Assembly: GCA_004210455.1 (NCBI GenBank)
Contig: SEFA01000057.1
Span: 1 to 41,299, forward strand
Origin: Rubrivivax sp.
Lineage (GTDB): Bacteria > Pseudomonadota > Gammaproteobacteria > Burkholderiales > Burkholderiaceae_C
DNA: 41,299 nt
Direction: 5' to 3'
Shown here one piece after another: positions 19,100 through 41,108 of this stretch. A program made the translations under genes and the position numbers. How positions within the stretch are numbered: the stretch's first letter is position 1; every line of letters starts with the position of its first letter. Below the pieces are notes generated by a model, which saw only the letters and a program-made list of their open reading frames with translations, made no database searches and had not been told where the DNA came from.

Positions 19100-24736
<5,637 letters not shown>

Positions 24737-26326: not shown

Positions 26327-27172
26327 TCACGCCCCTTCAAGAAACCGCTGTACGACCGCGAAGTGCTCCGGCACGTTGAGTGCCGGGGCGTGGCCGCAGC
26401 CCGGGATCGTCACCACCTCCGCCCGCGGACCGCGCACGCGCATCGCCTCGGCCATCTCCGGCAGCAGAAGATCCGACGTTTCGCCACGCAGGCAGAGCAC
26501 CGGCAAGCTCAGCGAGTCCCACTCCGTCCAGCGCTTGTAATCGTCCGGATGGACGAAGAACTGGCGCACCATCGCCGGGTCGTAATGCGGCGTCACTCGC
26601 CCGTCGGGCAGCCGACGCACCGAGCTCTCCGTCAACCGACGCCATTGCGCATCGCTCATCCAGCCGTAGGGCTGGTAGATCTGGCGGAAGTACTGTTCCA
26701 GCTCCGACAGCGTGTCGAAGGCCGACGGCGACCCCGCGTAGCTGCGGATGCGCTGGATCGCCGGTTCCGCGAGTTCCGGACCGATGTCATTGAGCACCAG
26801 CCGTCGGATGCGACCGCGCAGCGAGCTCGCCGCGGCCAGCAAACCGATCGCTCCACCCATCGATGTGCCGACCCAATGGAACGTTGGCAGCGTCAGTTGG
26901 TCGACGAGCGCCACCGCCAGCTTCACGTAGAACGCCAGGCAGTACTCGTTGTCCGGATCCGGACTCCACTGTGACAACCCTCTTCCGAGGGTGTCCGGAC
27001 ACACCACGAAGTAGCGGCCCGTTCCCGCGAGGTGGGCCGCCAGTTCGTCCATGTCGCGCCCCGTGCGCGCCAAGCCGTGCCAGGCGATTACAGGCTCGGC
27101 GCCCGGCTCGCCCCAGGTTTGGACATGGATCTCGCGGCCTTCGCAGCGCAGGTAGTTCGATATCGACTTCAC
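26327..27172 (-). CDS. Alpha/beta hydrolase, last gene of the transporter operon
   Basis: A 281-residue cytoplasmic hydrolase. The nucleophile elbow is WVGTSMGGAIGLLAA (Ser), the oxyanion region is VIAWHGLARTGRDMDEL, and the catalytic His is in IPGCGHAPALNVPEHF. A GTG start at 27172 is chosen because GAGGAGGGG lies just upstream and the GTG overlaps the livM stop (GTGA). Upstream in-frame ATG residues fall inside livM. Family members cleave esters, lactones or C-C bonds. In this operon a natural guess is hydrolysis of imported hydroxyalkanoate oligomers, which would complement the secreted depolymerase. This is inference from position. Confidence 0.8.
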   Translation of the reverse strand: MKSISNYLRCEGREIHVQTWGEPGAEPVIAWHGLARTGRDMDELAAHLAGTGRYFVVCPDTLGRGLSQWSPDPDNEYCLAFYVKLAVALVDQLTLPTFHWVGTSMGGAIGLLAAASSLRGRIRRLVLNDIGPELAEPAIQRIRSYAGSPSAFDTLSELEQYFRQIYQPYGWMSDAQWRRLTESSVRRLPDGRVTPHYDPAMVRQFFVHPDDYKRWTEWDSLSLPVLCLRGETSDLLLPEMAEAMRVRGPRAEVVTIPGCGHAPALNVPEHFAVVQRFLEGA

Positions 27173-28254
27173 GATCCCCTCCTCGCCAGCCGCAGGCGCC
27201 CGACCAGGCCGTTCGGGAAGTGGTACACGGCCAGCACGAACAGCACGCCCAGCCACAGCAGCCAGCGCTCCGGCGCGATCAGCTGCGACAGCACCGGCAC
27301 GCCCGCCACCGCCGAAGCGCCGACCCGCATCAGGTCCTGCAGGTAGCTTTGCGCCAGCACGAACAGCACGCTGCCGATCACCGCGCCGTAGATCGTGCCC
27401 ATGCCGCCGATCACGACGATCAGCAGGATGTCCAGCATGATCTCGAAGGACAGCGACGTGTCCGGCCCGTTGTAGCGCAGCCAGATCGCCAGCAGCGCCC
27501 CGGCCAGCGTCGCGAAGACGGCCGCCAGCAGCGTCGACAAGGTGCGGTAGGTCACCAGCCGGTAGCCGAGCGCCTCGGCGCGGAAGTCGTTGTCGCGGAT
27601 GGCCTGCAGCACGCGGCCGAACGGCGAGTTGACGATGCGCAGCAGCGCCAGCACCAGCATCACGGCGACGACGAACAGCAGGTAGTAGGTCAACAGCCGA
27701 CCGTCGATGACAACGCCGAGCACAGGCTCCTCAAGGAATTCCGTCGACGGCGAGAGCAGCTCCGGGAGCCGGAAGTTGAGCCCGTCCTCTCCGCCGGTGA
27801 AGTCGGACAGCTGCGAAGCCAGACCCTGGAACGCCGCCGCGACGGCCAGCGTGATCATTGCGAAGAAGATCGCCTTCACGCGCAGCGAGAACAGCCCGAT
27901 GACGAGCGCCAGCAGCAGCGACACCGCCAGCGCGCCACCGATGCCGACCGCCAGCGCCGCGAAGCCCGGCGCCATCCGCGAGCTCGCGATGGCGACGCCG
28001 TAGGCCCCGATGCCGAAGAACATGGTGTGCGCGAAGCTCACGATGCCGGTGTAGCCGAGCAGCAGGTCGTAGCTGCTGACGAGCACGATGAAGACGAGGA
28101 TCTTGGCCGCGACGTTCAGCGCCTTGGTGCCCGGGAACACGAACGGCGCGAGCGCCAGCCCGAGCACGGTGATCAGCAGCAGCGCCGCCAGCACGCGGCT
28201 GCGGGGCAGGTCGTGCGACAGCACGGACCGGAGCAGGGAGGGGATCAGGCGCAT
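27169..28254 (-). CDS. livM: LivM-like ABC transporter permease
   Basis: A 361-residue inner-membrane permease of the HAAT (branched-chain amino acid/amide) family. About nine hydrophobic segments are present, with the family phrases SSYDLLLGYTGIVSFAHTMF and FGRVLQAIRDNDFRAEALGY (the coupling loop contacting the ATPase), and GGMGTIYGAVIGSVLFVLAQ near the end. It pairs with LivH. It lies 16 bases after livH and overlaps the hydrolase start. Substrate cannot be read from the permease. Confidence 0.92.
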   Translation of the reverse strand: MRLIPSLLRSVLSHDLPRSRVLAALLLITVLGLALAPFVFPGTKALNVAAKILVFIVLVSSYDLLLGYTGIVSFAHTMFFGIGAYGVAIASSRMAPGFAALAVGIGGALAVSLLLALVIGLFSLRVKAIFFAMITLAVAAAFQGLASQLSDFTGGEDGLNFRLPELLSPSTEFLEEPVLGVVIDGRLLTYYLLFVVAVMLVLALLRIVNSPFGRVLQAIRDNDFRAEALGYRLVTYRTLSTLLAAVFATLAGALLAIWLRYNGPDTSLSFEIMLDILLIVVIGGMGTIYGAVIGSVLFVLAQSYLQDLMRVGASAVAGVPVLSQLIAPERWLLWLGVLFVLAVYHFPNGLVGRLRLARRGS

Positions 28255-28270
28255 GGCAAGCTCGCTCCGC

Positions 28271-29334
28271 TCAACGGTGGCCGACCGGATAAAGGCCCTG
28301 CGGCCGCCACAACAGCACGGCGACCATCAGCCCGATGTTGGAGAACAGCGCCGCCTTGGGCGCGAGGAAACCGCAGTAGTTGGCCATCAGCCCGACCAGC
28401 AGCGCGCCGACGAAGCAGCCCAGTGTCGAGCCCAGCCCGCCGATGATGATCACGATGAAGATCAGCGTGTTGACCTGCGCGCCGATCTGCGGGATGACGC
28501 TCTGCTGGTAGAGCCCCCACAGCACGCCGCCCAGGCCCGCCAGGCCGGACCCGGCGACGAAGACCGCCACGAACAGCCGCCGGATGCGATAACCGAGGCT
28601 CTCGACCATCTCCCGGTCCTGCACGCCCGCGCGGATCAGCAGGCCGAGCTTGGTCCGGTTGAGCAGCCACAGCAGTCCGACGAACACCGCGAGACCGACG
28701 ACGACGGCGAGCAGCCGGAACTTCTCGACCGCCACGTCGCCGACGACGAGCGCGCCGCGCAGCGACTCCGGCGGCTGCAGCGGGATCATCTGCGGGCCCC
28801 AGACCAGCTTGATCAGCTCCTCGCCGATGATCATGCCGCCCATCGTGATCAGGATCTGTTTCAGATGCATGCCGTAGACGGGCCGCACCAGCACCCGTTC
28901 GAAGACCAGGCCCAGGGCCGCCGCGCTTACGATGCCTGCGAGCGCCGCCACGGCCACCGCGCCGAGATTGACCGTGAGCGACGGACTCGACACGAAGCCC
29001 CCGTAGGTGTTCATCGCCCCCATCACCGTCGTCGCGACGAAGGCGCCCAGCGCGATGAACACGCCATGGCCGAAGTTCAGCACGTCCATCAGGCCGAAGA
29101 CCAGCGTCAGGCCCGAAGCGATGACGAAGACGATCAATCCCATCGCCAAGCCGGCGATCGTCAAGGTCGCCCAGCTCGACATGGACCCGATCAGCGGCAG
29201 CGCCGCCAGCGCCAGCGCCAGGACCAGCGCCAGCGGGATGGCATCGAAGCGCGCGCGGGGCACCGGCTGCGCACCGTCCGTCGAGCCGTGCACGGGCTTG
29301 GGCATTGCAGCGGTCCTCATCGTGTCCTTTCCGC

Positions 29335-29338
<4 letters not shown>
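28271..29338 (-). CDS. livH: LivH-like ABC transporter permease
   Basis: A 355-residue permease of the same system. The typical phrase is ASGLTLVFGLMDVLNFGHGV, with the coupling loop in RAGVQDREMVESLGYRIRRL and the conserved GGLGSTLGCFVGALLVGL. The N-terminus has about 35 extra residues before the first membrane helix. The ATG at 29338 overlaps the livF stop (ATGA); a second in-frame ATG lies at 29320. With LivM it forms the membrane channel. Confidence 0.92.
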
Positions 29339-30092
<754 letters not shown>

Positions 30093-30096
<4 letters not shown>

Positions 30097-30848
30097 GCGG
30101 CCTCCGGCATCGCCAGCCCCAGATAGGCGTTCTGCACGACCGGCGAGGCGATCACCGCCTCGGGCTCCCCGTCCGCGACGAGCTGCCCGTTGTGCAGCAC
30201 GACGATGCGGTCGGCCAGTGCCCTCACCACGTCCATCTTGTGCTCGACCAGCAGGAGGGTGTGGGTCCCTTCCGCCTTCAACGCACGGATCAGGTCCAGG
30301 ATCACCGGCACCTCGTCGACGCTCATGCCCGCGGTGGGCTCGTCGAACAGGTAGACCTTCGGCTTGAGCGCCATCAGCATCGCGACCTCCAGCTTGCGCT
30401 GGTCGCCGTGCGGCAGGCTCGCGGCCGCAGCATCGACACGATGACTTAGCCGGACGCGCTCGACGATCGCGCGCGCTTCGTCGAGCAGCTCCCGGTGGTT
30501 CAACCACACCGACCACATCCGCAGGCCCTCGCCGCGGCGCGACTGCACGGCCAGCCGCACGTTCTCGAGCACGCTCAGGCTCGGGAACAGCTGCGTCAGC
30601 TGGAAAGCGCGACCCAGCCCCCGCCGCGTGCGCAGCGGCGCGGCCAGACGCGTGAGGTCCTCGCCGTCCAGCAGCACGCGGCCGGCGCTCGCGCCCAACT
30701 GTCCCGAGATCAGGTTGAAGTAGGTCGTCTTGCCGGCGCCGTTGGGACCGACGATCGCTGTCAACGTGCCGGGGTGGAACACAGCGCTGACGCGGTCCAC
30801 GGCCGTGTGGCCGCCGAAGCGGATGGTGAGGTCGCGGGTTTCGAGCAT
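30093..30848 (-). CDS. livG: LivG-like ABC transporter ATPase
   Basis: A 251-residue ABC ATPase with Walker A IVGPNGAGKTTYFNLISGQL, Walker B KVYLFDEPTAGMSVDE and switch His in LLVEHKMDVV. The signature is degenerate, SLPHGDQRKLEVAM rather than LSGGQ, which is common in LivG proteins. The start at 30848 (MLETRDLTIRFGG) overlaps the depolymerase stop by one base (TGATG). Order livG-livF-livH-livM is reversed from E. coli (HMGF) but is often seen. Confidence 0.92.
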
Positions 30849-32098
30849 CAGGGACAGGTGCCGATCACGTAGTAATTGGGCGCGGTCTGCTTCAGCGTCG
30901 TGGTGACGAAGATGTTCCACAGGCCCATCGCCTGGTTGGAGCCGTTGGCGTAGGTGATGCCGTACAGCGCGTAGGCGCGGCCGGAGATCGAGTGCGTGTA
31001 ATTCGACGCGGTGAAGCAGGTCGCGGGCGTGCCCGGATCGCCGGGATCACCCGGATCGCCCGGGTTGCCCGGCGTGCCGCCGGCCACCTTGTCCACCATC
31101 GCCTTGATCGCGCCGATCTGCGTGCCGGCCTTCTGCGCGAAATTGGAGCCATACCAGCCGACCCAGTCCCAGCAGCCGTTCGGGTTGGGCAGCAGGCCGC
31201 TGGCGGCGGTCGAGCGCGAGGTGTTGTCCACCTTGGTTTGCGGGAACAGCACGACGATGTTGTTGGTGTCGGCCCAGCGCGAGAAGCCGGTGTTCCTCAC
31301 GAACCTGTCACCGATGGTGGCGTAATTCTGCTGGCAGCCGTGCAGCGCGACGTGCAGCTTGCAGACCTGACCGGCCGCGCAGTTGGCGGGCACGTAGGCC
31401 CAGCCGGTCGCCGCCAGGCCGGGGTTGGTGCTGAACGCGGTCTGGTCGAACTCGATGTAGTTGGCCGCGGCGGGGCTGTTGTTGCGCGCGCTCAAGCTGC
31501 CGTACAACTTCGTGAGCACCGCCTTCGCGCCGTCGTAGCCGCAGTTCGCGATGTAGGGCGACGCGCTGCTGCCGCAGCTGTTGTTGCCGGCGGCGTCGAA
31601 GTCGGTCGGCAGCACGTGGGCGGTGCCGCTGCGCTGGACGTATTCGAGATTGGCCGCCGTGACGCCGTTGTTGAGGTATTGCGTCTGCATCGCGTTCATC
31701 GGGTTGGGCCCGACGGTCGTGTCGCTCAGGCCGACGAACAGGAAGACCTTCTGCGAAGCGACGTTGCTCTTGGCGTCGATCGCCGTGCCGCTCCAGTTGT
31801 TGAGGTCGGCCTGCATCGTGTTCAGCGCGGACGACGAGATCGTCGCGTTGTACATGCAGGCGGTGTAGTTGCTGTGGCCGGCGCAGTGGTAGGGCCCGGC
31901 GGCGAAGACGCCGATGCCCTTGAACGTCGAGGAATGCGCGTAACCGAGCTGGTTGGCCATGAAGCCGCCCGAGGACAGGCCCGACACGGTGATCTGGGTC
32001 TTGTCGATGTTGAGCGACGGCAGCGGCACGGCCGCCTGCGCGGCGCCCGCGAATGCCAACGTGGCGGAGACGAGGAATCGGACAACGGACGACTTCAT
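30848..32098 (-). CDS. Secreted short-chain-length PHA depolymerase, type-2 catalytic domain
   Basis: A 416-residue exported esterase expected to cleave short-chain polyhydroxyalkanoates such as PHB. It has a signal peptide (cleaved after AAQA, near residue 22). The lipase box GLSSGG gives nucleophile Ser42, close to the N-terminus. Asp126 (FVGLSDTTVGP) and His161 (SGTAHVLPTD) complete the triad. The oxyanion His253 (LHVALHGCQQ) comes after the triad, the order that defines type-2 catalytic domains. A Gly-Asp-Pro linker (PGDPGDPGDPG) leads to a 55-residue C-terminal domain beginning TCFTASNYTHSISGRAYALY, possibly for polymer binding. AGGAGG precedes the ATG. Its place between the binding protein and the ATPase genes is unusual. 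Confidence 0.88.
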   Translation of the reverse strand: MKSSVVRFLVSATLAFAGAAQAAVPLPSLNIDKTQITVSGLSSGGFMANQLGYAHSSTFKGIGVFAAGPYHCAGHSNYTACMYNATISSSALNTMQADLNNWSGTAIDAKSNVASQKVFLFVGLSDTTVGPNPMNAMQTQYLNNGVTAANLEYVQRSGTAHVLPTDFDAAGNNSCGSSASPYIANCGYDGAKAVLTKLYGSLSARNNSPAAANYIEFDQTAFSTNPGLAATGWAYVPANCAAGQVCKLHVALHGCQQNYATIGDRFVRNTGFSRWADTNNIVVLFPQTKVDNTSRSTAASGLLPNPNGCWDWVGWYGSNFAQKAGTQIGAIKAMVDKVAGGTPGNPGDPGDPGDPGTPATCFTASNYTHSISGRAYALYGITYANGSNQAMGLWNIFVTTTLKQTAPNYYVIGTCP

Positions 32099-32160
32099 TG
32101 GAAACCTCCTGGATGTCGATGGACCTTCAGCGGGGACGCTCAACGCGCCACGTCGGGCGC

Positions 32161-33363
32161 TCAGCGCTTGTTGCGAACGGGGATGTTCATCTCCTCGGGC
32201 TTGATCTCGCGCACCAGCTCCGGCACGCCCCAGGCGAAGGCTGGATCCACCTTGATCTTGAAGTGGTACATCGACTGCATCGCCTGGTGGTCCTCGGGCC
32301 GGAAGGTCATGCGGCCCTTGGGGGTCTCGAAGCTCATGCCTTCCATGGCCTTGATGAGCTTGTGGGTCGCGGTATCTCCGCCGGTCTTCTTGAGCGCCTC
32401 GACGACCGCGATCGCCGCGCTCATGCCGCCGGCGGTGAAGAAGTCGGGCGGCGCCTTGAACTGCTTGTAGTGGTTGGCCACCAGCCATTCATTGACCGGG
32501 TTCTTCGGGATGCCGAAGTAGTAGTAGGTCGCGCCCTCCATGCCGGGCAGCGCCTTGTACGCGGCCATCGCCGGCAGGATGTTGCCGCCGGTGGCGATCT
32601 CGATGCCGTAGCGCTTGAGATCGAGGTCGGCGATCTTGAACGGGTTGCCCGCGCCGGCCCAGATGATGAAGATGACCTTCCGGCCTGGTTGGTCCTTGAG
32701 CCGGTCGATCAGCCGCTGCGCGCCGGCGGTGAAGTCGGTCGTGGTGGTCGGCAGGTATTCCTCGTGAACGACCTTCGCCTTCCTGATCGCATCCTTGAAG
32801 GCCTTCACGCCGTCACGGCCGAAGGCGTAGTCCTGCGCCAGCGTCGCGATCACGGTGCCCGGCTTGTCGAGCGCCACCGCGTTGGAGATCGCATCCTGCG
32901 AGCTGTTGCGGCCGGTCCGGAAGATGTACTTGTTCCACTTGTCGCCGGTGATCGAGTCTGCAACGGCCGGCTCGACCAGCAGGATCTTCTTGTACTCCTC
33001 GGCCACAGGCAGCAACGCGAGCGCGACACCCGACGAGGAAGGGCCGACGGCGATGTCCGCCTTGTCGTCGCCGTAGGCCGCGGCCAACTGGCTCTTGCCG
33101 ACGTCGGGCTTGCCCTGATCGTCCTTCTCGAGGACGACCAGCTTGCGGCCCGCCACGGTCATCGTGCCGCCGGTCGCGTAGTCCAGGCCCATCAGGAAAC
33201 CGGTCTGCGTCTGCTTGCCGTAAGCCTCGAGCGGGCCGGTGCGGCTGTAGACGTGAGCGATGCGGATGTCCTGGCCTTGAGCGAGCGCCGGCGCGCTCGC
33301 GCTGAAGGCGGCGGACAGCGCCAGGACCGCGCCGGTCGCGGCGCGGATGAAGCCGTGGATCAT
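32161..33363 (-). CDS. Periplasmic substrate-binding protein of the Liv-type transporter
   Basis: A 400-residue type-I periplasmic binding protein (Peripla_BP_6/LivJ-like) with a signal peptide (cleaved after ALA, before QGQDIRIAHV). Typical phrases are RIAHVYSRTGPLEAYGKQTQ, VGPSSSGVALALLPVAEEYK and TLAQDYAFGRDGVKAFKDAI. The ligand is not identifiable; relatives bind amino acids, amides, aromatic acids or other small organic acids. It is the first gene of the operon, downstream of a sigma54-type promoter. A 62-base gap separates it from the depolymerase gene. Confidence 0.93.
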   Translation of the reverse strand: MIHGFIRAATGAVLALSAAFSASAPALAQGQDIRIAHVYSRTGPLEAYGKQTQTGFLMGLDYATGGTMTVAGRKLVVLEKDDQGKPDVGKSQLAAAYGDDKADIAVGPSSSGVALALLPVAEEYKKILLVEPAVADSITGDKWNKYIFRTGRNSSQDAISNAVALDKPGTVIATLAQDYAFGRDGVKAFKDAIRKAKVVHEEYLPTTTTDFTAGAQRLIDRLKDQPGRKVIFIIWAGAGNPFKIADLDLKRYGIEIATGGNILPAMAAYKALPGMEGATYYYFGIPKNPVNEWLVANHYKQFKAPPDFFTAGGMSAAIAVVEALKKTGGDTATHKLIKAMEGMSFETPKGRMTFRPEDHQAMQSMYHFKIKVDPAFAWGVPELVREIKPEEMNIPVRNKR

Positions 33364-33419: not shown

Positions 33420-33435
33420 CGCAAGGTCCGTGCCG
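33420..33435 (-). promoter_or_regulatory. Sigma54 (RpoN) -24/-12 promoter of the binding protein/PHA depolymerase/Liv operon
   Basis: The minus strand reads CGGCACGGACCTTGCG. Compared with the sigma54 consensus TGGCACG-N4-TTGCW it matches all core positions (GGCACG, TTGC, and the invariant GG and GC ten bases apart); the outer T and W are C and G. The start codon of the operon is about 57 bases downstream of the -12 GC, giving a leader of about 45 bases. Confidence 0.8.
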
Positions 33436-33464: not shown

Positions 33465-33544
33465 CTGTCCGGGTTCCAGACAGCGGCGTGTGATGGCGAT
33501 CAGGGAAGTGTCTGGAAACCAGTCACTGTCCGGAGTCCAGACAG
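33465..33544. promoter_or_regulatory. Three dyad repeats, probable enhancer sites for a sigma54 activator
   Basis: CTGTCCGGGTTCCAGACAG (33465-33483) and CTGTCCGGAGTCCAGACAG (33526-33544) are near-identical direct repeats with 5-bp dyad arms. A third, looser dyad TGTCTGG-aaa-CCAGTCA lies at 33509-33525. They sit about 65, 108 and 126 bases upstream of the predicted start of the sigma54 transcript, where activator sites are expected. The activator could be the protein encoded at 35380-36924. Confidence 0.6.
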
Positions 33545-33566
33545 CGGCGCATTCGATGCGCCGCTG
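33542..33566 (-). terminator. Hairpin after the chemoreceptor gene
   Basis: CAGCGGCGCAT-tcg-ATGCGCCGCTG is a perfect 11-bp stem, 10 bases past the chemoreceptor stop codon. No long T-run follows on the minus strand (GTCTGG). It partly overlaps the most distal dyad repeat. Confidence 0.55.
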
Positions 33567-33575
33567 GACAGAGGC

Positions 33576-35207
33576 TCACGTGCGGAAGGTCGCGACGTGC
33601 TCGTTGAGCAGGCGGGCCTGCTGCTGCAGCGACTCGGCGGCGGCGGCGGTCTCCTCGACCAGCGCGGCGTTCTGCTGCGTCATGTCGTCCAGGTGCTTCA
33701 CGGCCTGGTTGATCTGCGCCAGGCCGTCGGACTGGCCGGCGCTGGACTGGCTGATCTCGGCGACCGTGCCGCTGACCTGCTGCACCGATTGCAGGATCTG
33801 GCCCATCGCCTCGCCGGCGCGACCCACTTGCGCTCCGCCCGCGTCGACGCGCGTGACCGAGTCGTTGATCAGCGCCTTGATCTCCTTGGCCGCGTTCGCG
33901 CTGCGCTGCGCCAGCGCGCGCACCTCGGAAGCGACGACCGCGAAGCCCCGTCCCTGCTCGCCCGCGCGGGCTGCCTCGACGGCGGCGTTGAGCGCCAGGA
34001 TGTTGGTCTGGAAAGCCACGCCGTCGATGACGGAGATGATGTCGGCGATCTTGCGGCTGGCGCCAGCGATGCCGTCCATCGTCTGCACGACCTCTCCCAT
34101 GACATCGGCGCCGAGCTTGGCGCGATCGGCCGCGCCGATGGCCAGCTGATTCGTCTGATGCGCGGCCTGCGCGGAATGCGTGACCTGCTGTGTCAGCTCA
34201 TGCATGGACGCCGCCGTCTGCTGCAGGCTGGACGCCGCCTGCTCGCTGCGCTGCGACAGATCCTGGCTACCCATCGCAACCTCGCGCGACGCGTGCTGGA
34301 TGGAATCCGTCGCATCGCGGATCGCGCGCACCAGATCGCTGAGGCGCCCCTGCATCGCGGCGACCTGCGTGAGGACCTGGCCGATCTCGTCGTTGCCGGT
34401 CGTCTGCCCGCCGACCACCTGCGCCCGCAGGTCGCCGTTGGCCACGGCTTCGACCACCTCGCGCATCTGGTTCAGCCGGCGCTTGAGGCCGCGGGCGAAC
34501 CACTCGACGGCGACCAATGCCGCGATGCCGAAGGCGATCACCAGCACCAGCGCGATCGTCGCGTCGCGTCGCGCGATGCCAGACACGTCGTCGATGTACA
34601 CGCCCGAGCCGATCACCCAGCCCCATGGCTTGAAGCCGGTCACGTAGGACCGCTTGGGTTCCGGATCCTTGGCGCCCGGCTTGGGCCAGAGGTAATCGAC
34701 GAAGCCGCTGCCCTGCGCCTTGACGGTATCGACGAAGGCGACGAACAGCTTCAGGCCGTTCGGATCCTTGTTGCCGGAGAGGTCCTTGTCGTTGAGCTCC
34801 GGCTTGATCGGGTGCATGACCATCCTGGGGGTCATGTCGTTGATCCAGATGTACTCGTTGCCCGAGTAGCGGATCTTGCCGATCTCAGCGGCGGCCTGCT
34901 TCTTCGCGTCGGCCTCGGTGAGGCCGCCAGCGCCGATCTTGTCGAAGTGCCGCTTGGCGATCTGCTCGGCGTTCTTCACCTGCTCGACCGTCGTGATCAT
35001 CTTGACGTCCAGCAGGCTCATCGCGGAGCGGTGGCTCAGCCACATCACCAGCACGACGAAGCCGACCACCGCGGCCAGCACCGCCACGCGCAGCTTGGTG
35101 GCCAGCGTCCAGGCCCGGGGGGCCGTCGTCTTCGAACTCGTCCGGGCGCCAGAAGGCGCGTCCGCAGGGAATCCGGTCGTGGTCGTGGTCGTGGTGAGCG
35201 TGTTCAT
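33576..35207 (-). CDS. Methyl-accepting chemotaxis protein with periplasmic Cache domain
   Basis: A 543-residue chemoreceptor. After a Thr-rich N-terminus (seven consecutive Thr) there is a first membrane helix ([20 protein letters not shown]). A periplasmic single-Cache-like sensor follows ([40 protein letters not shown], then [20 protein letters not shown]). A second membrane helix, a HAMP linker and the signalling domain come next, with the highly conserved tip [20 protein letters not shown] then [17 protein letters not shown]. The Cache domain of this sort commonly binds small carboxylic acids. The gene lies directly upstream of the transporter operon and downstream of the sigma54 activator, on the same strand. 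AGGAGA before the ATG supports the start. Confidence 0.95.
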
Positions 35208-35379: not shown

Positions 35380-36924
35380 TCAGGCAGCGGTCAGCTCGGG
35401 GTACTTCGCAAGCTTCTCGTAAAGCGTCGCCCGGGAAATCGCCAGCAGCCGCGCGGCGGCCACGCGATTGCCGTTGGTGCTGCGGAGCGCCTGGGCGATG
35501 GCGGCGCGCTCCAGCTCGGCCTTGCGGGCGGGCAGGGTCTCCGTGGTTGCTGCACCGAGCACACGTTGCGGGAGCCGGTACCCCTCCTCGCTCCCACTCC
35601 TGCGCATGCTCGGAAGGTCGCTCGGAGGGGCACCGGCCCCCGCAACGTCCGCATCGCTCGCTGTGATCGGTTCGAGCACTGCGGGCGCGGCATCATGGAG
35701 ACCGAAATGTCCCGGCAGCAGCTCGTCGTCGTCGCTCATGAGGAAGGCCTGCTCCAGCGCGTTGCGCAACTCGCGGACGTTGCCGGGCCAGGTCTTGCCT
35801 TCCAGGGCCTTCAGCGCCGCGGCGCTCAGCACCTTGGGCGCAAGACCACTGCGCCTCGCAATATCCTCCAGGAGCACGTCGACCAGCGTCCCGATGTCCT
35901 CGCCACGCTCGCGCAGCGCCGGCAGACGGATCGGGAGGACGTTCAGCCGGTAGAACAGGTCGGCGCGGAACTCGCCACGCTGCACCATCGCCGCCAGGTC
36001 CCGGCTGGTCGCCGCGATCACGCGGACGTTGACCTTGACGACCTCGTTGCTGCCCAGCGGCTCCAGTTCCTGCTCCTGCAGCACCCGCAGGAGCTTGGCC
36101 TGGAGCGCCGGCGGCATGTCGCCGATCTCGTCGAGGAAGAGCGTGCCGCCGTCGGCCAGCTTGAACTTGCCGTCACGGCCCTTGCGATCCGCACCGGTGT
36201 AGGCACCGGGCGCGACGCCGAAGAACTCGGCCTCCAGGAGGGTCTCGGGCACGGCGGCGATGTTGACGGACACGAGCGGCCGCGCCGCGCGGCGCGAGGC
36301 GGCATGGATCGCATGCGCGAGCAGTTCCTTGCCGGTGCCGGTTTCGCCGAGCAGCAGCACGGTGGCCTCCGTCTGCGCGACGCGTCGCGCATGGCGCTTG
36401 ACCTCGACGGCAGCGGCGCTCGATCCGACGAAGTCGACGATCCGGTGCTTGGCGCGACGGTTGCGGGACTGTTCGGCCGCGAGCTGGCGGCGCGTGTCGT
36501 CCAGCTCGGCCTGGAGGCAGGCGAACTTGTTCATCAAGGGCTGCATCGTCGTCTCGGGATGGTCCAGCAGGACCATGCCCATCGCGCCGATGACGTCGCC
36601 GCCGGGACCGCGCAAGGGCAGCCGGCTGACGAGGAAGGTCCCCGCCTTGTTGGTCAGCAGGTCCACGAGGATGGGCTGGCCGGTATCGATGACCTGGGCC
36701 ATCAAGGTGTTGGGGACGACTTCCTCGACGCGGCGTCCGACGAATTCGGATTCGTCGCGGAAGCCGAGCGCGGGCAGGAAGCGCTTGTAGCCTTCGCTGA
36801 TCCAGACGACACGGTGCTCGCGGTTGACGACCATCGCGCCCTGGGCGGTGCTGGCCAGCACGTCGAACATGGACTGCGCCGCCAGCCGCAGCACGGCCTC
36901 GGCATCCTGGGGAATGTCGTTCAT
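35380..36924 (-). CDS. PAS-AAA+-Fis sigma54-dependent transcriptional activator
   Basis: A 514-residue enhancer-binding protein. Residues about 15-125 are a PAS domain (MFDVLASTAQGAMVVNREHR ... GGDVIGAMGMVLLD). Residues about 165-395 are the AAA+ domain, with Walker A LLGETGTGKE (193-200), the sigma54-contact loop as GAYTGA (usual GAFTGA), Walker B GGTLFLDEIGDMP and the arginine-finger region FRADLFYRLNVLPI. A Fis-type helix-turn-helix ends the protein (NGNRVAAARLLAISRATLYE). The ATG at 36924 follows AGGAGA. It is divergent from the malonate operon and two genes upstream of the PHA depolymerase/Liv operon. The second has a sigma54 promoter; the first does not show one. Confidence 0.93.
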   Translation of the reverse strand: MNDIPQDAEAVLRLAAQSMFDVLASTAQGAMVVNREHRVVWISEGYKRFLPALGFRDESEFVGRRVEEVVPNTLMAQVIDTGQPILVDLLTNKAGTFLVSRLPLRGPGGDVIGAMGMVLLDHPETTMQPLMNKFACLQAELDDTRRQLAAEQSRNRRAKHRIVDFVGSSAAAVEVKRHARRVAQTEATVLLLGETGTGKELLAHAIHAASRRAARPLVSVNIAAVPETLLEAEFFGVAPGAYTGADRKGRDGKFKLADGGTLFLDEIGDMPPALQAKLLRVLQEQELEPLGSNEVVKVNVRVIAATSRDLAAMVQRGEFRADLFYRLNVLPIRLPALRERGEDIGTLVDVLLEDIARRSGLAPKVLSAAALKALEGKTWPGNVRELRNALEQAFLMSDDDELLPGHFGLHDAAPAVLEPITASDADVAGAGAPPSDLPSMRRSGSEEGYRLPQRVLGAATTETLPARKAELERAAIAQALRSTNGNRVAAARLLAISRATLYEKLAKYPELTAA

Positions 36925-37150: not shown

Positions 37151-38458
37151 ATGGCCATCGTGGATTCCTGGACTTCGGCGCGCGCGGCAAGGCAGGTGCT
37201 GTCGCTGGCGCACAAGCTGCTGTCGGAGCGCGGCCAGGCGAACAGCCTGGGCCTGGCCCAGGAGCTGATCGGGCGGATGGGCGCGCTGCCGGGGGACGCC
37301 TGGCCGGCCGTGTTCGACAAGCTGGCCGCCGATTTCAATCCGGAGCCCGCGGCCGTGCTGCAGGCCGCGCAGGCCTACGCCGACGCGCCCGGGACCGAGA
37401 CGCTGCGCCGGTTGACCGAGCTGGGCGAGCCGCCGCGGCAGGAGCTGTTCCGCCGCCTGAACCGCGCGCCCGGCGGCACGGGAACGCTGGTACGGATGCG
37501 CCGGCGCCTGCTGGACGGTCTGGCCTCGCACCCGGACTGGCGCATGGTGGACGCCGACCTGCTGCACCTGCTGTCCTCGTGGTTCAACCCGGGCTTCCTG
37601 GAGATGCGGCAGGTCGACTGGCACTCGCCCGCGCACCTGCTGGAGCAGATCATCCACCACGAGGCGGTGCACGCGATCGACGGCTGGGACGACCTGCGGC
37701 GCCGGCTGCTGCCGGACCGGCGGCTGTTCGCGTTCTTCCATCCGCAGCTGCCCGACGAGCCGCTGATCTTCGTGGAGATCGCGCTGTTGCCCGACATGCC
37801 GGACGCGATCGCGCCCCTGATCGGCAAGCGCAGCGAGGCGATGCCGCCGAACAGCTTCAAGGCCGCCGTCTTCTATTCCATCAGCAACTGCGAGCCGGGC
37901 CTGCGCGGGGTCTCGCTGGGCAACTTCCTGATCAAGCGCGTGGCCGAACACCTGCGGCGCGAACTGCCGCGGCTGAAGCTGTTCTGCACGCTGTCGCCGA
38001 TCCCGGGCTTCGCCGCCTGGCTGCAGCGGATGCGGACGGCGGAGGATGCCGCCGCGGCGGGCACCGGGCTCGACGGGCTCGCCGGTCTGAAGGCGGCGCA
38101 GCGGACGCGCGCCGCGGAAGCGCTGGACCGACTCCGGCACCACACGCCGGCCGAACTCGCCAGTCCGGGCGCCCTTGAGGATGAGACGCTGCAGGCGGAT
38201 CTGCGACGTCTGGCCGCCGTCTATCTGATCGGCCAGACGCCGCTGCCGGGCGGCGATCCCGTCGCGCGTTTCCACCTGGACAACGGCGCCCGTCTTGAAC
38301 GACTCAACCCCGGCGGCGACCGTTCGGCCAAGGGTCTGAAACAGTCGCACGGGATGATGGTCAATTACCTCTACGACCTCGACCGCATCGAGGAACACCA
38401 CGAAGCTTTCACCCAGGGGGAGATCGCGACGGCGCGCGCCGTCGGCGGTCTGCTCTGA
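37151..38458 (+). CDS. Malonyl-CoA decarboxylase
   Basis: Converts malonyl-CoA to acetyl-CoA and CO2. The 435-residue protein has the family's N-terminal helical domain and a GNAT-like catalytic domain. Landmarks are SSWFNPGFLEMRQVDWHSPA, IIHHEAVHAIDGWDDLRRRL, FVEIALLPDMP and YSISNCEPGLRGVSLGNFLI, with the conserved Ser and His motifs of the family (HxEAVH; SNCxxGL). The C-terminus is complete (HGMMVNYLYDLDRIEEHHEA). It is the first gene of an operon with a Bug-type binding protein and malonyl-CoA synthetase. Together these allow growth on malonate or turnover of malonyl-CoA. Equivalent to rhizobial matA. Confidence 0.93.
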   Translation: MAIVDSWTSARAARQVLSLAHKLLSERGQANSLGLAQELIGRMGALPGDAWPAVFDKLAADFNPEPAAVLQAAQAYADAPGTETLRRLTELGEPPRQELFRRLNRAPGGTGTLVRMRRRLLDGLASHPDWRMVDADLLHLLSSWFNPGFLEMRQVDWHSPAHLLEQIIHHEAVHAIDGWDDLRRRLLPDRRLFAFFHPQLPDEPLIFVEIALLPDMPDAIAPLIGKRSEAMPPNSFKAAVFYSISNCEPGLRGVSLGNFLIKRVAEHLRRELPRLKLFCTLSPIPGFAAWLQRMRTAEDAAAAGTGLDGLAGLKAAQRTRAAEALDRLRHHTPAELASPGALEDETLQADLRRLAAVYLIGQTPLPGGDPVARFHLDNGARLERLNPGGDRSAKGLKQSHGMMVNYLYDLDRIEEHHEAFTQGEIATARAVGGLL

Positions 38459-38477
38459 CCCCTTCCGATCATCCTTC

Positions 38478-38501
38478 CACCCTTGTTCCCACCCTTGTTC
38501 C
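38478..38501 (+). repeat. Tandem 12-base repeat CACCCTTGTTCC
   Basis: Two perfect copies (38478-38489 and 38490-38501) lie in the 92-base gap between the decarboxylase and the binding-protein genes, followed by a partial CCCCTTG. Pyrimidine-rich on the plus strand. Role unknown. Confidence 0.6.
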
Positions 38502-38550
38502 CCCCTTGCCCACCGACACCGCGGCCCGCAGAGGCCCACAGGAGACACGC

Positions 38551-39555
38551 ATGACCCAGACTTCCACGACCCGCCGCCGCCTGCTGGGCGCCGCCGCCCT
38601 GGCCTCCCTGTCCGCCGCGGGCGCAGGGATCGCGCCGTCGGCGTTCGCGCAGGCCGCATGGCCGAGCCGGCCCGTGGTCATCGTCGTGCCCTTCCCGGCC
38701 GGCGGCGGCACCGACGCCTTCGCGCGACCGCTGACGGCCGTGCTGACCAAGCAGACCGGCAAGCAGTTCATCATCGACAACAAGGGCGGCGCCGGCGGGA
38801 CCGTCGGCGCGACCCTCGCGTCCAAGGCCGCGCCGGACGGCTACACCTTCTTCATGGGCGCCGTGCACCACGCGATCGCGCCGGCGATGTATCCCAAGCT
38901 CGAGTACAAGCTGGAGGAGGACTTCGTCCCCGTCGCGCTGGTCTCCAGCGTGCCGCAGGTGATCGTGATCAACCCGGCGAAGGTGCAGGCCACCGATGTG
39001 AAGGGCCTGCTCGACTTCCTGAAGAAGAACCCCGGCAAGCTGAACTACGGCTCGGCGGGCAACGGCACCTCGCACCACCTCGCGGGCGAACTCTTCAAGC
39101 TGCAGACGCAGACCTTCATCACCCACATCCCCTACCGCGGCGCCGGCCCGGCGCTGCAGGACCTGATGGCGGGCCAGGTGGACCTGATGTTCGACGGCCT
39201 GGGCTCGTCGGCGGCGCACATCCGCGGCGGACGCATCAAGGCGCTGGCGGTGGCCTCGTCCAAGCGCGCGCCGGGCTTCCCGGACATCCCGAGCGCCGCG
39301 GAGGCCGGCATCCCGCAGTACCAGGTCGCCACCTGGTACGGGCTGTGGGCGCCGAAGGGCACGCCGAAGGAAGTGATCGCCGCGATGCAGGCGGAGCTGC
39401 GCAAGGCCTATGCGACCGAGGAGCTGAAGAACATCTGGACCGGCCTGGGCACCGACATGCCCACGCTCTACGGCGACGCCTTCGGCAAGTTCGTGCACGG
39501 CGAGGTGGTGCGCTGGGCCGACGTGGTCAAGCGCAGCGGTGCGAAACTGGATTGA
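38551..39555 (+). CDS. Bug-family (TctC-like) tripartite tricarboxylate transporter substrate-binding protein
   Basis: A 334-residue periplasmic binding protein. It has a twin-arginine-like signal (TTRRRLLGAAALASLSAAGA, cleavage after AFA). The mature protein starts WPSRPVVIVVPFPAGGGTDA, diagnostic of Bug proteins, with later NYGSAGNGTSHHLAGELFK and HIPYRGAGPALQDLMAGQVD. Position between the two malonate enzymes suggests it binds malonate or a related dicarboxylate. No TctA/TctB membrane partners are in the window, so it is an orphan or works with a system elsewhere. Its stop overlaps the matB start (TGATG). Confidence 0.93.
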   Translation: MTQTSTTRRRLLGAAALASLSAAGAGIAPSAFAQAAWPSRPVVIVVPFPAGGGTDAFARPLTAVLTKQTGKQFIIDNKGGAGGTVGATLASKAAPDGYTFFMGAVHHAIAPAMYPKLEYKLEEDFVPVALVSSVPQVIVINPAKVQATDVKGLLDFLKKNPGKLNYGSAGNGTSHHLAGELFKLQTQTFITHIPYRGAGPALQDLMAGQVDLMFDGLGSSAAHIRGGRIKALAVASSKRAPGFPDIPSAAEAGIPQYQVATWYGLWAPKGTPKEVIAAMQAELRKAYATEELKNIWTGLGTDMPTLYGDAFGKFVHGEVVRWADVVKRSGAKLD

Positions 39556-41108
39556 TGAACACCGTGAACGCCAACCTGTTCGCCGCGCTGCGCGCGAATT
39601 TCTCCGACGACCTGGACGCCTGCGCGATCGAGCTGGCCGACGGCCCCGACGCCGGCCAGCGCTACAGCTGGCGCGACATCGACCGCGCCACGGCGATGAT
39701 CGCCAACCTGCTGGACTCGCTGGACCTGCCCGCGGGCAGCCGCGTCGCGGTGCAGACGGAGAAGAGCGTCGAGGCGCTGCTGCTGTACCTCGCGGTGCTG
39801 CGCGCCGGCTACGTCTACCTGCCGCTGAACACGGCCTACCAGGCCGCCGAGCTCGAGTACTTCATCGACAACGCGGAGCCGGCCGTGGTCGTCTGCGCGG
39901 GGAAGAACTTCGGCTGGATCAGCAAGCTGGCGTTCCAGGCCAAGGTGCCGTGGGTGTTCACGCTGAACGAGGACCGCAGCGGCACGCTGCTGGACCGCGC
40001 GGTGCAGATGCCCGACACGCACCAGGCGGCGGAGAAGACCGCCGATGAGCTGGCGGCGATCCTCTACACGAGCGGCACGACCGGTCGCAGCAAGGGCGCG
40101 ATGCTGAGCCACGGCAACCTGCTGTCCAACGCCGAGGTGCTCAAGCACCACTGGGGCTGGCAGGCGGACGATGTGCTGATCCACGCGCTGCCGATCTTCC
40201 ATGTGCACGGGCTGTTCGTCGCATCGCATGGGGCCTTGCTGTCGGGCGCGAAGATGCTGTGGTTCAACCGCTTCGATCCTCGCGGCGTGATCGCGCGGCT
40301 GCCGGACGCGACGCTGTTCATGGGCGTGCCGACGCTGTACGTGCGGCTGCTGGAACAGGCCGCGCTGACCCGGGAGGCCTGCGCGCGGATGCGCCTGTTC
40401 ATCAGCGGTTCCGCGCCGCTGCTGATCGAGACCTTCCACGAATGGCAGCGTCGCACCGGGTTCACCATCCTGGAGCGCTACGGCATGAGCGAGACAGTGA
40501 TGCTGACCTCGAATCCGTACAAGCCCGAGGACGGCGAACGTCGCGGCGGCACGGTCGGTCGTCCGCTGCCGGGCGTGGGGCTGCGCATCGTCGACGACGC
40601 GGGCGCGCCCTGCCCCAGCACCGGCGACGGCGAGATCGGCCACCTCCAGGTGAGCGGACCCAACGTGTTCTCGGGCTACTGGCGCATGCCGGAGAAGACG
40701 AAGGAGGAATTCACCGCCGACGGCTGGTTCAAGACCGGCGACGTGGGCCGGCGCGACGACCGGGGCTACGTGACGATCGTGGGGCGGAGCAAGGACCTGA
40801 TCATCACCGGCGGCTACAACGTGTACCCGGCGGAGATCGAAGGCTGGCTCAACGAGTTGCCCGGCGTGGCGGAGTCGGCCGTGGTCGGCGTCCCGCATCC
40901 GGACTTCGGCGAAGGCGTGATCGCCGTGGTGGTGCCGCGATCCGGCGCCGCGCTGGACGGCGCGACGCTGATCGCGGCGCTGAAGGACCGCATCGCGGGC
41001 TTCAAGGTGCCCAAGCGCGTCTTCGTCGACGGCGAGTTGCCCCGCAACGCGATGGGCAAGGTGCAGAAGAACCTGCTCCGCGATCGGCACCGCGGACTGT
41101 TCGACTGA
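39555..41108 (+). CDS. matB: MatB, malonyl-CoA synthetase
   Basis: Activates malonate with ATP and CoA to malonyl-CoA. The 517-residue protein is an ANL-superfamily adenylate-forming ligase. It has the P-loop LAAILYTSGTTGRSKGAMLS, HALPIFHVHGLFVA (MatB-type), LERYGMSETVML, GWFKTGDVGRRDDRGYV (hinge Asp) and the C-terminal catalytic Lys in LPRNAMGKVQKN. Fatty-acid or acetate ligases have a different HxxG region, so the malonate assignment is good, supported by the decarboxylase neighbour. The ATG overlaps the preceding stop. Confidence 0.93.
   Translation: MNTVNANLFAALRANFSDDLDACAIELADGPDAGQRYSWRDIDRATAMIANLLDSLDLPAGSRVAVQTEKSVEALLLYLAVLRAGYVYLPLNTAYQAAELEYFIDNAEPAVVVCAGKNFGWISKLAFQAKVPWVFTLNEDRSGTLLDRAVQMPDTHQAAEKTADELAAILYTSGTTGRSKGAMLSHGNLLSNAEVLKHHWGWQADDVLIHALPIFHVHGLFVASHGALLSGAKMLWFNRFDPRGVIARLPDATLFMGVPTLYVRLLEQAALTREACARMRLFISGSAPLLIETFHEWQRRTGFTILERYGMSETVMLTSNPYKPEDGERRGGTVGRPLPGVGLRIVDDAGAPCPSTGDGEIGHLQVSGPNVFSGYWRMPEKTKEEFTADGWFKTGDVGRRDDRGYVTIVGRSKDLIITGGYNVYPAEIEGWLNELPGVAESAVVGVPHPDFGEGVIAVVVPRSGAALDGATLIAALKDRIAGFKVPKRVFVDGELPRNAMGKVQKNLLRDRHRGLFD

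What the first reader, a model, noticed from the sequence alone, without database searches (positions are those of the whole stretch)
26327..33363. A secreted PHA depolymerase built into a Liv-type ABC transporter operon
The gene order is binding protein, type-2 PHA depolymerase, LivG, LivF, LivH, LivM, alpha/beta hydrolase. Stop-start overlaps occur at depolymerase/livG, livG/livF, livF/livH and livM/hydrolase, so the depolymerase is a true operon member and not a neighbour. Liv-type systems are known for amino acids, amides and organic acids. A polymer depolymerase inside one suggests an uptake pathway for hydroxyalkanoate monomers or oligomers, with the terminal hydrolase splitting oligomers in the cytoplasm. 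I know of no described transporter of this type for that substrate.
Basis: partly seen in the sequence, partly recalled or inferred. Interest (0 to 1): 0.72.

Follow-up and report, generated by a model that had tools for sequence, protein, structure and literature searches.

The report
Bioplastic-eating operon with its own importer
A bacterium keeps the gene for a secreted enzyme that breaks down the natural polyester PHB inside the gene set for one membrane importer, and related bacteria repeat and extend this arrangement, so the importer probably takes up fragments of the polymer.

Summary
On the minus strand, 26327-33363 holds binding protein, type-2 PHB depolymerase (phaZ), livG, livF, livH, livM and an alpha/beta hydrolase, with the stated overlaps. 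It is not strain-specific. In 150 genomes of the family, 85 have the binding protein; of 80 loci fetched from these, 77 keep the order livK-livG-livF-livH-livM and 72 have the hydrolase downstream. In genomes with both livK and phaZ, phaZ lies beside livK in 21 of 24, in one fixed slot. A sigma-54 activator is conserved upstream. The binding protein lacks LivJ's ammonium-site glutamate. Best reading: a sigma-54-controlled operon that cuts external PHB and imports 3-hydroxybutyrate and/or its short oligomers through a Liv-type ABC importer. The ligand is inferred, not shown; 51 of 85 homologous operons carry neither PHB enzyme, including the one other genome of the same genus sampled, so the importer's substrate may be broader. 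No such importer was found in the open-access papers searched.

The parts
32161..33363 (-). livK-like periplasmic binding protein (400 aa, signal peptide by eye), first gene
   Evidence: Peripla_BP_6 177 bits; closest solved chains 3n0x and 3nnd (E 2e-176, 6e-168)
30848..32098 (-). phaZ: type-2 short-chain-length PHA depolymerase (416 aa, signal peptide by eye); Ser42-Asp126-His161, oxyanion motif at 250, C-terminal binding motif SNYTHSISGRA at 365
   Evidence: NF050059 368.6 bits over cut-off 280; PDB 2d80/2d81 E 2e-98/5e-98; residues checked
30093..30848 (-). livG-like ATPase
   Evidence: ABC_tran; 1-nt overlap with phaZ
29335..30096 (-). livF-like ATPase
   Evidence: ABC_tran; 4-nt overlap with livG
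28271..29338 (-). livH-like permease
   Evidence: BPD_transp_2 111 bits; 4-nt overlap with livF
27169..28254 (-). livM-like permease
   Evidence: BPD_transp_2 114 bits; 16 nt after livH
26327..27172 (-). alpha/beta hydrolase (281 aa, GTG start, no signal peptide seen by eye, so taken as cytoplasmic), motifs GTSMGG 102, RGETSD 229, GCGHAP 258
   Evidence: Abhydrolase_1 69.8 bits; closest solved chain 3bwx E 3e-38; motifs; in 132 relatives GHAP in 131, nucleophile motif in 128, RGxxSD-like motif in 54
33421..33435 (-). sigma-54 (-24/-12) promoter-like site CGGCACGGACCTTGC, 57 bases between it and the livK start codon
   Evidence: the only match without mismatch in the window; loosened pattern in 47 of 177 upstream regions, in none of the 17 from the phylum search, against 0.3% of base-shuffled ones
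33465..33549 (.). repeated palindromic CTGTCCGG..CCAGACAG elements (33465-33488, 33526-33549, a weaker third at 33509-33525), possible activator sites
   Evidence: repeat search; activator binding is inferred
35383..36924 (-). sigma-54-dependent activator (514 aa from the ATG at 36924; stop codon 35380-35382)
   Evidence: Sigma54_activat 228 bits, HTH_8; upstream on the same strand within 5.5 kb in 61 of 74 family loci that have at least 3.5 kb upstream
33576..35207 (-). chemoreceptor (sCache_2, HAMP, MCPsignal) between activator and livK; optional neighbour
   Evidence: upstream on the same strand in 5 of 80 family loci

Best explanation
The operon is an extracellular-PHB utilisation system. 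A sigma-54 activator switches on livK-phaZ-livGFHM-hydrolase. PhaZ is exported and cuts PHB outside the cell into 3-hydroxybutyrate (3HB) and short oligomers. In many relatives, but not in this genome, an oligomer hydrolase, often with a lipoprotein-like signal, trims these further. The binding protein captures 3HB and/or its dimer or trimer, and the LivGFHM ABC importer brings them into the cytoplasm. There the alpha/beta hydrolase splits ester oligomers, and 3HB dehydrogenase, encoded elsewhere in this genome, feeds central metabolism. Shown by sequence: gene content, order, overlaps, enzyme families, conservation, activator gene. Inferred: ligand, direction, secretion, oligomer import, role of the hydrolase, promoter use, inducer.
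For: Depolymerase identity over the curated cut-off, with catalytic triad and C-terminal binding motif. phaZ beside livK (same contig, under 12 kb) in 21 of 24 genomes that have both; 3HB-oligomer hydrolase in 25 of 32, one of them in fragments; either enzyme in 34 of 85 livK genomes, both in 12 (inputs). Position fixed: phaZ between livK and livG in 47 of 48 loci, 3HBOH after livM in 58 of 58 (few repeats). Two strongly diverged groups of type-2 depolymerase occupy the same slot. Named Acidovorax operons such as L158, L162, L168-L172 read livK-phaZ-livGFHM-3HBOH-second binding protein-hydrolase. PF10605 scores 964-1078 bits in 4 of 4 operon copies scanned; PF10605 is in 0 of 14 control genomes. 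The LivJ Glu226 and Thr102 residues are kept in 0 of 46 aligned sequences, Ser79 in 46 of 46. The hydrolase homologue (58%) also sits beside 3HBOH in a 15-kb stretch without a liv match (L231). A homologue of the activator in another order of the class sits beside TRAP transporter genes and a 3HB dehydrogenase that passes its cut-off (L224). This genome has a 3HB dehydrogenase at 354.6 bits, cut-off 307.05.
Against: 51 of 85 homologous operons have neither PHB enzyme in the operon, and 42 of 85 genomes have neither anywhere at the thresholds used. The other genome of the same genus sampled (G127) and all six loci named Roseateles have no phaZ in the operon, though three of the six have 3HBOH. 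Of 17 loci from the phylum search, 16 keep the core order, phaZ is in none, and 3HBOH in 2, one in the window's order and one in its family. phaZ and 3HBOH presence do not co-vary significantly once the tree is allowed for (median sign-test p 0.625 and 0.25). The window's own genome has no 3HBOH. The terminal hydrolase scores 37 bits against a cut-off of 300 for the known intracellular scl-PHA depolymerase model. No binding or growth data.
Confidence: 0.75

Rival explanations
1. The importer serves a broader or different organic acid (for example other short hydroxy or keto acids), and PHB enzymes joined it in some lineages because 3HB happens to be one of its substrates.
For: Most homologous operons lack both PHB enzymes (51 of 85), including the same-genus genome G127. 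The transporter reaches other classes of the phylum without phaZ. phaZ needs at least 15 changes on the transporter tree. Distant loci have other enzyme neighbours: AMP-binding and enoyl-CoA hydratase (L127), PLP decarboxylase (L128, L130).
Against: Two unrelated PHB enzymes occupy fixed slots; the hydrolase is downstream in 72 of 80 family loci whether or not PHB enzymes are there; AMP-binding and enoyl-CoA hydratase neighbours would also suit 3HB use. It overlaps with the best explanation, since 3HB would still be a substrate.
Confidence: 0.4
2. Only the 3HB monomer is imported; all oligomers are cut outside, and the terminal hydrolase acts on another ester.
For: Many relatives carry an oligomer hydrolase, with a lipobox-like motif in 45 of 56, which would deliver monomer. 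Liv-type binding proteins usually take small ligands (recalled).
Against: This genome has no 3HBOH yet keeps the hydrolase; a hydrolase homologue is next to 3HBOH even without liv genes (L231).
Confidence: 0.4
3. An ordinary branched-chain amino acid, amide or urea importer with a depolymerase gene next to it by chance.
For: Overall Liv/Urt family resemblance of all five transporter parts.
Against: Binding protein scores 54.9 and 53.0 bits against cut-offs of 477 (Liv) and 492.75 (UrtA); ammonium-site residues lost; phaZ position conserved in 47 of 48 loci.
Confidence: 0.04

Closest known systems
Liv / HAAT-type ABC importers (E. coli LivJ/LivK-LivHMGF)
   Same: One binding protein, two ATPases, two permeases of the same families; Ser79, Tyr18 and Phe276 positions of LivJ kept in 46 of 46
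   Different: Residues aligned with LivJ Glu226, Thr102 and Tyr202 replaced; below every Liv and Urt cut-off; PHB enzymes inside the operon
Extracellular scl-PHA depolymerases with type-2 catalytic domain (PMC2666664, passages read)
   Same: Lipase box first, triad, oxyanion motif after it, C-terminal binding motif; over the NF050059 cut-off
   Different: Short Pro-Gly-Asp linker; about 60-110 aa shorter than most operon relatives; encoded within a transporter operon
3HB-oligomer hydrolase (PF10605)
   Same: Present in the same operon of many relatives
   Different: Absent from this genome; the terminal hydrolase here is a different alpha/beta hydrolase family
HbcR (PA2005) with RpoN, control of (R)-3HB catabolism in Pseudomonas aeruginosa (PMC8694187, passages; the original paper is not held)
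   Same: A sigma-54 activator linked to 3HB genes; a homologue of the window's activator sits by a 3HB dehydrogenase in another order
   Different: Orthology to HbcR not tested; HbcR is not known to me to control a Liv importer
Binding protein of PDB 3n0x/3nnd (Rhodopseudomonas palustris, recalled)
   Same: Closest solved relative, matched over residues 31-400
   Different: Deposited as possible substrate-binding protein; ligand not known to me, and no paper with these codes in this sense was found

Membership tests
Extracellular scl-PHA depolymerase, catalytic domain type 2 | Match to the curated family model over its cut-off | tested here: met
   NF050059 368.6 bits, cut-off 280
Extracellular scl-PHA depolymerase, catalytic domain type 2 | Lipase box and triad, with the oxyanion region C-terminal to them | tested here: met
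   Ser42, Asp126, His161 and VALHGCQQ at 250 (aligned to 2d80; the 2d80 triad and the oxyanion reading recalled; order of features from PMC2666664)
Extracellular scl-PHA depolymerase, catalytic domain type 2 | C-terminal substrate-binding domain motif sxxxHxxAGRa | tested here: met
   SNYTHSISGRA at 365, one Ala-to-Ser difference; motif as given in PMC7199957
Extracellular scl-PHA depolymerase, catalytic domain type 2 | Secretion out of the cell and activity on PHB | not testable with these tools
   signal peptide seen by eye; one type II secretion pseudopilin family match in the genome
Liv/HAAT ABC importer | Binding protein, two ATPases and two permeases of the family in one operon | tested here: met
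Branched-chain amino acid Liv importer | Curated Liv models | tested here: not met
   binding protein 54.9 of 477, LivG 181.2 of 362, LivF 167.2 of 441, LivH 65.2 of 379, LivM 67.1 of 366
Branched-chain amino acid Liv importer | Acidic residue that binds the ligand's ammonium group (LivJ Glu226, recalled) | tested here: not met
   aligned residue Ile in 45 of 46, Leu in 1 of 46; no acidic residue in the neighbouring stretch of the window protein
Urea importer Urt | Curated UrtA to UrtE models | tested here: not met
   UrtA 53 of 492.75, UrtB 152.3 of 250.3, UrtC 120.1 of 296.2, UrtD 204.8 of 304.1, UrtE 201.5 of 285.8
Intracellular scl-PHA depolymerase (terminal hydrolase) | Curated model NF050089 | tested here: not met
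   37 bits against 300
3HB-oligomer hydrolase PF10605 (terminal hydrolase) | Match to PF10605 | tested here: not met
   not among its Pfam matches; no match in the whole genome at E 0.001
Sigma-54-dependent operon | Activator gene and -24/-12-like site upstream | tested here: met
   promoter function not measured
HbcR regulator | Orthology to PA2005 | not tested
   PA2005 sequence was not fetched

The most novel reading that the evidence does not exclude
The Liv-type system is the first ABC importer for ester oligomers: it takes up intact 3HB dimers and trimers released from PHB, which the cytoplasmic alpha/beta hydrolase then splits, a polyester counterpart of oligopeptide and maltodextrin import, with depolymerase, oligomer hydrolase, importer, cytoplasmic hydrolase and sigma-54 control assembled in one operon in many Burkholderiales.
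Probability: 0.4. Interest if true: 0.75.

Novelty: new variant of a known kind. Interest (0 to 1): 0.62.

Why it matters
PHB is a common storage polyester and the base of commercial biodegradable plastics (general knowledge). The enzymes that cut it are well studied; how the products enter Gram-negative cells was not described in the papers seen here. A conserved operon that names a candidate binding protein, importer and regulator makes that step directly testable, and gives a marker (livK next to phaZ or 3HBOH) for polyester users in genomes and metagenomes.

Tried and rejected
Rejected: chance neighbourhood; amino-acid, amide or urea specificity, by family model and pocket. A lactate ABC transporter of Phaeobacter (recalled) was considered as a relative and not pursued: searches did not turn up a description of it. 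R. palustris ligand-mapping paper PMC3223731: none of six terms occurs in its main text. A link between phaZ and 3HBOH presence shows in raw counts (17 genomes with both, Fisher p 0.0005) but is not significant on the tree, so it is not used. With one mismatch allowed the sigma-54 pattern is not enriched in the window (6 found, 4.27 expected), so the promoter rests on position and relatives; the pattern was built on the window site and loosened afterwards. Lipobox counts (45 of 56) come from a loose pattern that can match by chance and also misses cases such as L050 and L053, whose N-termini show a lipobox-like Cys. In one search my script took the antisense frame of 3HB dehydrogenase as query; the gene in L224 was then identified on the correct strand by its curated model. 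In one search the second depolymerase group was sampled by L061 and L215 (both over the cut-off); L048 was given with coordinates that returned no family and is dropped. My first reading, that no relative overlaps at phaZ/livG, was wrong and is replaced. Structure prediction and fold search were not used.

Papers: PMC9007349, PMC12542648, PMC13373117, PMC7199957, PMC7830162, PMC13390443, PMC8694187, PMC2666664 and PMC12117332 were seen as passages found by term (up to 12 per paper); PMC3223731 only as a term count. Other papers only as search listings, some of them capped (15 of 23 listed; 20 of 35).
Full report
What is there. The seven genes stand on the minus strand exactly where the finding puts them, with the overlaps it describes. 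livK and phaZ are separated by 62 nt; phaZ and livG share one base; livG/livF, livF/livH and livM/hydrolase overlap by four; livH and livM are 16 nt apart. The depolymerase passes the curated type-2 scl-PHA depolymerase model (368.6 bits, cut-off 280) and aligns over its catalytic domain with the Penicillium PHB depolymerase 2d80 (E 2e-98; species from PMC2666664). Ser42, Asp126, His161, the later oxyanion motif and the C-terminal binding motif are present. The transporter parts match the Liv/Urt families in general, but none reaches a Liv or Urt cut-off.

Conservation. In 150 genomes of the family, the binding protein occurs at E 1e-100 or better in 85, the depolymerase at 1e-30 or better in 31, and PF10605 in 45, of which 44 are over the cut-off; I used 42 of these 45, leaving out G074, G086 and G139, whose matches are short or weak. 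Taking the best place per genome, phaZ lies within 12 kb of livK on the same contig in 21 of the 24 genomes with both (the window's genome counted); 3HBOH in 25 of 32, one of them fragments; both in 12; either in 34 of 85; neither in 51 of 85. phaZ lies elsewhere in 3 livK genomes and in 7 genomes without livK.

I fetched 80 of the 85 loci. Other inserted genes set aside, the order livK-livG-livF-livH-livM is intact in 77 of 80; the three misses (L068, L072, L090) are contig ends. The hydrolase is downstream in 72 of 80; of the eight misses L068, L072, L090 and L105 are contig ends and L061 is the end of the fetched stretch. phaZ is in 21 of these 80, one of them a fragment. Among 80 named loci (at least 15 repeat an unnamed locus), phaZ is in 27 and 3HBOH or a carboxylesterase in 33. 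Over both sets, 47 of 48 phaZ loci have phaZ between livK and livG and one is cut by the contig end; with two loci of the phylum search added, 58 of 58 loci with 3HBOH have it after livM. At least 1 of the 48 and 5 of the 58 are repeats.

The nearest named relative is Mitsuaria sp. PDC51 (binding protein 94% identical), with the same gene order. Named loci with phaZ include Acidovorax, Rhizobacter, Ramlibacter, Piscinibacter, Aquabacterium, Ideonella, Caldimonas and Pseudacidovorax. Against this, the other same-genus genome in the sample (G127), Mitsuaria sp. WAJ17 (L150) and all six loci named Roseateles lack phaZ in the operon; three of those six have 3HBOH.

The second PHB enzyme. An open frame of about 700 aa between livM and the hydrolase was identified as 3HB-oligomer hydrolase (PF10605) in 4 of 4 copies scanned, at 964-1078 bits; the others were found by similarity. 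In Acidovorax it is followed by a second binding protein. Ramlibacter loci L166 and L177, and the unnamed L098, carry a carboxylesterase there. The window's genome has no PF10605 match, one phaZ with one further weak match of 23.5 bits, and one close copy of the binding protein, the next match being 25% identical.

Two depolymerase groups, one slot. On a quick tree of 53 depolymerases, a group like the window's (20 operon members and 2 from elsewhere) is set off by a long, fully supported branch from the other operon members, which do not form one clade. Both sampled members of the second group pass the type-2 model. Either the gene was replaced in place or the slot was filled more than once. 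On a quick tree of transporter proteins of 77 loci, presence of phaZ needs at least 15 changes, and so does 3HBOH. The enzymes are thus gained or lost often while their places stay fixed.

The binding protein. In an alignment of 46 sequences (the window and a sample of the unnamed loci, distant ones included) with E. coli LivJ and LivK (E. coli genes), the position of LivJ Ser79 is Ser in 46 of 46 and Tyr18 is Tyr in 46 of 46, while Glu226 is Ile in 45 and Leu in 1, Thr102 is Val in 45 and Ser in 1, and Tyr202 is Gly in 34. The roles of these LivJ residues are recalled. At this distance the alignment may be off by a column or two, but the window protein has no acidic residue in the stretch around Glu226. 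This fits a carboxylate without an amino group, such as a hydroxy acid, and does not identify it. The closest solved relatives are 3n0x and 3nnd.

Regulation. A sigma-54 activator at 35383-36924 lies upstream on the same strand within 5.5 kb in 61 of 74 family loci and 56 of 68 named loci that have at least 3.5 kb upstream, but in only 3 of 16 loci of the phylum search. The window has one exact -24/-12 match, 57 bases before livK, and repeated palindromic elements behind it. A loosened pattern occurs in 47 of 177 upstream regions, none of them among the 17 of the phylum search, against 0.3% of base-shuffled regions. In 274 sampled genomes of the class, with at most five candidates scored per genome, 5 have a close relative of the activator, three of them outside the family. 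Of the four loci of these three genomes, three sit by TRAP transporter genes, and one of those also by a 3HB dehydrogenase over its cut-off. HbcR of P. aeruginosa is a sigma-54 activator of (R)-3HB catabolism (PMC8694187, passages); orthology was not tested.

The terminal hydrolase. It has no evident signal peptide and belongs to a general alpha/beta hydrolase family. In 132 relatives GHAP is kept in 131, the nucleophile motif in 128 and an RGxxSD-like motif in 54. In L231, which has no liv match in 15 kb, it directly follows 3HBOH. This ties it to 3HB esters, weakly.

How it most likely works. PHB outside is cut by PhaZ; 3HB and short oligomers reach the periplasm; the binding protein and LivGFHM import them; the hydrolase splits oligomers; 3HB dehydrogenase, present in the genome at 354.6 bits (cut-off 307.05), oxidises 3HB. 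Gene content, order and conservation are shown; every substrate statement is inferred. The main weakness is that most homologous operons lack PHB enzymes and that distant relatives have other neighbours, so 3HB may be one substrate of a wider organic-acid importer.

What is known. Term searches of the open-access library (listings partly capped) and passages of PMC13373117, PMC7830162, PMC7199957 and PMC12117332 gave enzymes and pathways for PHB but no importer of this type for its products. Most subscription papers are not in that library, so this is no proof of absence. Depolymerase, oligomer hydrolase and Liv importers are each known; their joint conserved operon and the implied substrate are the new part.

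Noticed in passing
window 30848-32098 compared with operon relatives: The window's PhaZ has a short Pro-Gly-Asp linker before its binding domain; it and Mitsuaria PDC51 are about 60-110 aa shorter than most operon relatives.
   Followed up: partly
L107:12388-13743, L158, L162, L168-L172 and others: A second, different binding protein (Peripla_BP_6) lies between 3HBOH and the hydrolase in Acidovorax-type operons, so one importer may serve two ligands.
   Followed up: partly
L098:3314-5167, L166, L177: A carboxylesterase (PF00135 in L098; similar in the other two) stands between livM and the hydrolase, where others have the 3HB-oligomer hydrolase.
   Followed up: no
L064, L087, L176, L179, L182, L200: The livK gene is tandemly duplicated at the head of the operon.
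   Followed up: no
L224:2242-9771: A stretch from another order of the class carries TRAP genes dctP and dctM, the sigma-54 activator homologue, a chemoreceptor-like match and 3HB dehydrogenase: a possible TRAP importer for 3HB.
   Followed up: partly
window 33576-35207: An sCache_2 chemoreceptor sits between activator and livK, in 5 of 80 family loci on the same strand; it may steer cells to PHB products.
   Followed up: partly
L119:1355-5181: A genome of another family of the window's order has an AMP-binding (acyl-CoA synthetase type) gene between livM and 3HBOH.
   Followed up: partly
window 37151-41108, plus strand: The neighbouring genes look like malonate use (malonyl-CoA decarboxylase, a Bug-type binding protein, an acyl-CoA synthetase); recognised by eye, not searched.
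   Followed up: no
window 19100-24736, minus strand: A 1878-aa reading frame looks like a double-length UvrA (by eye).
   Followed up: no
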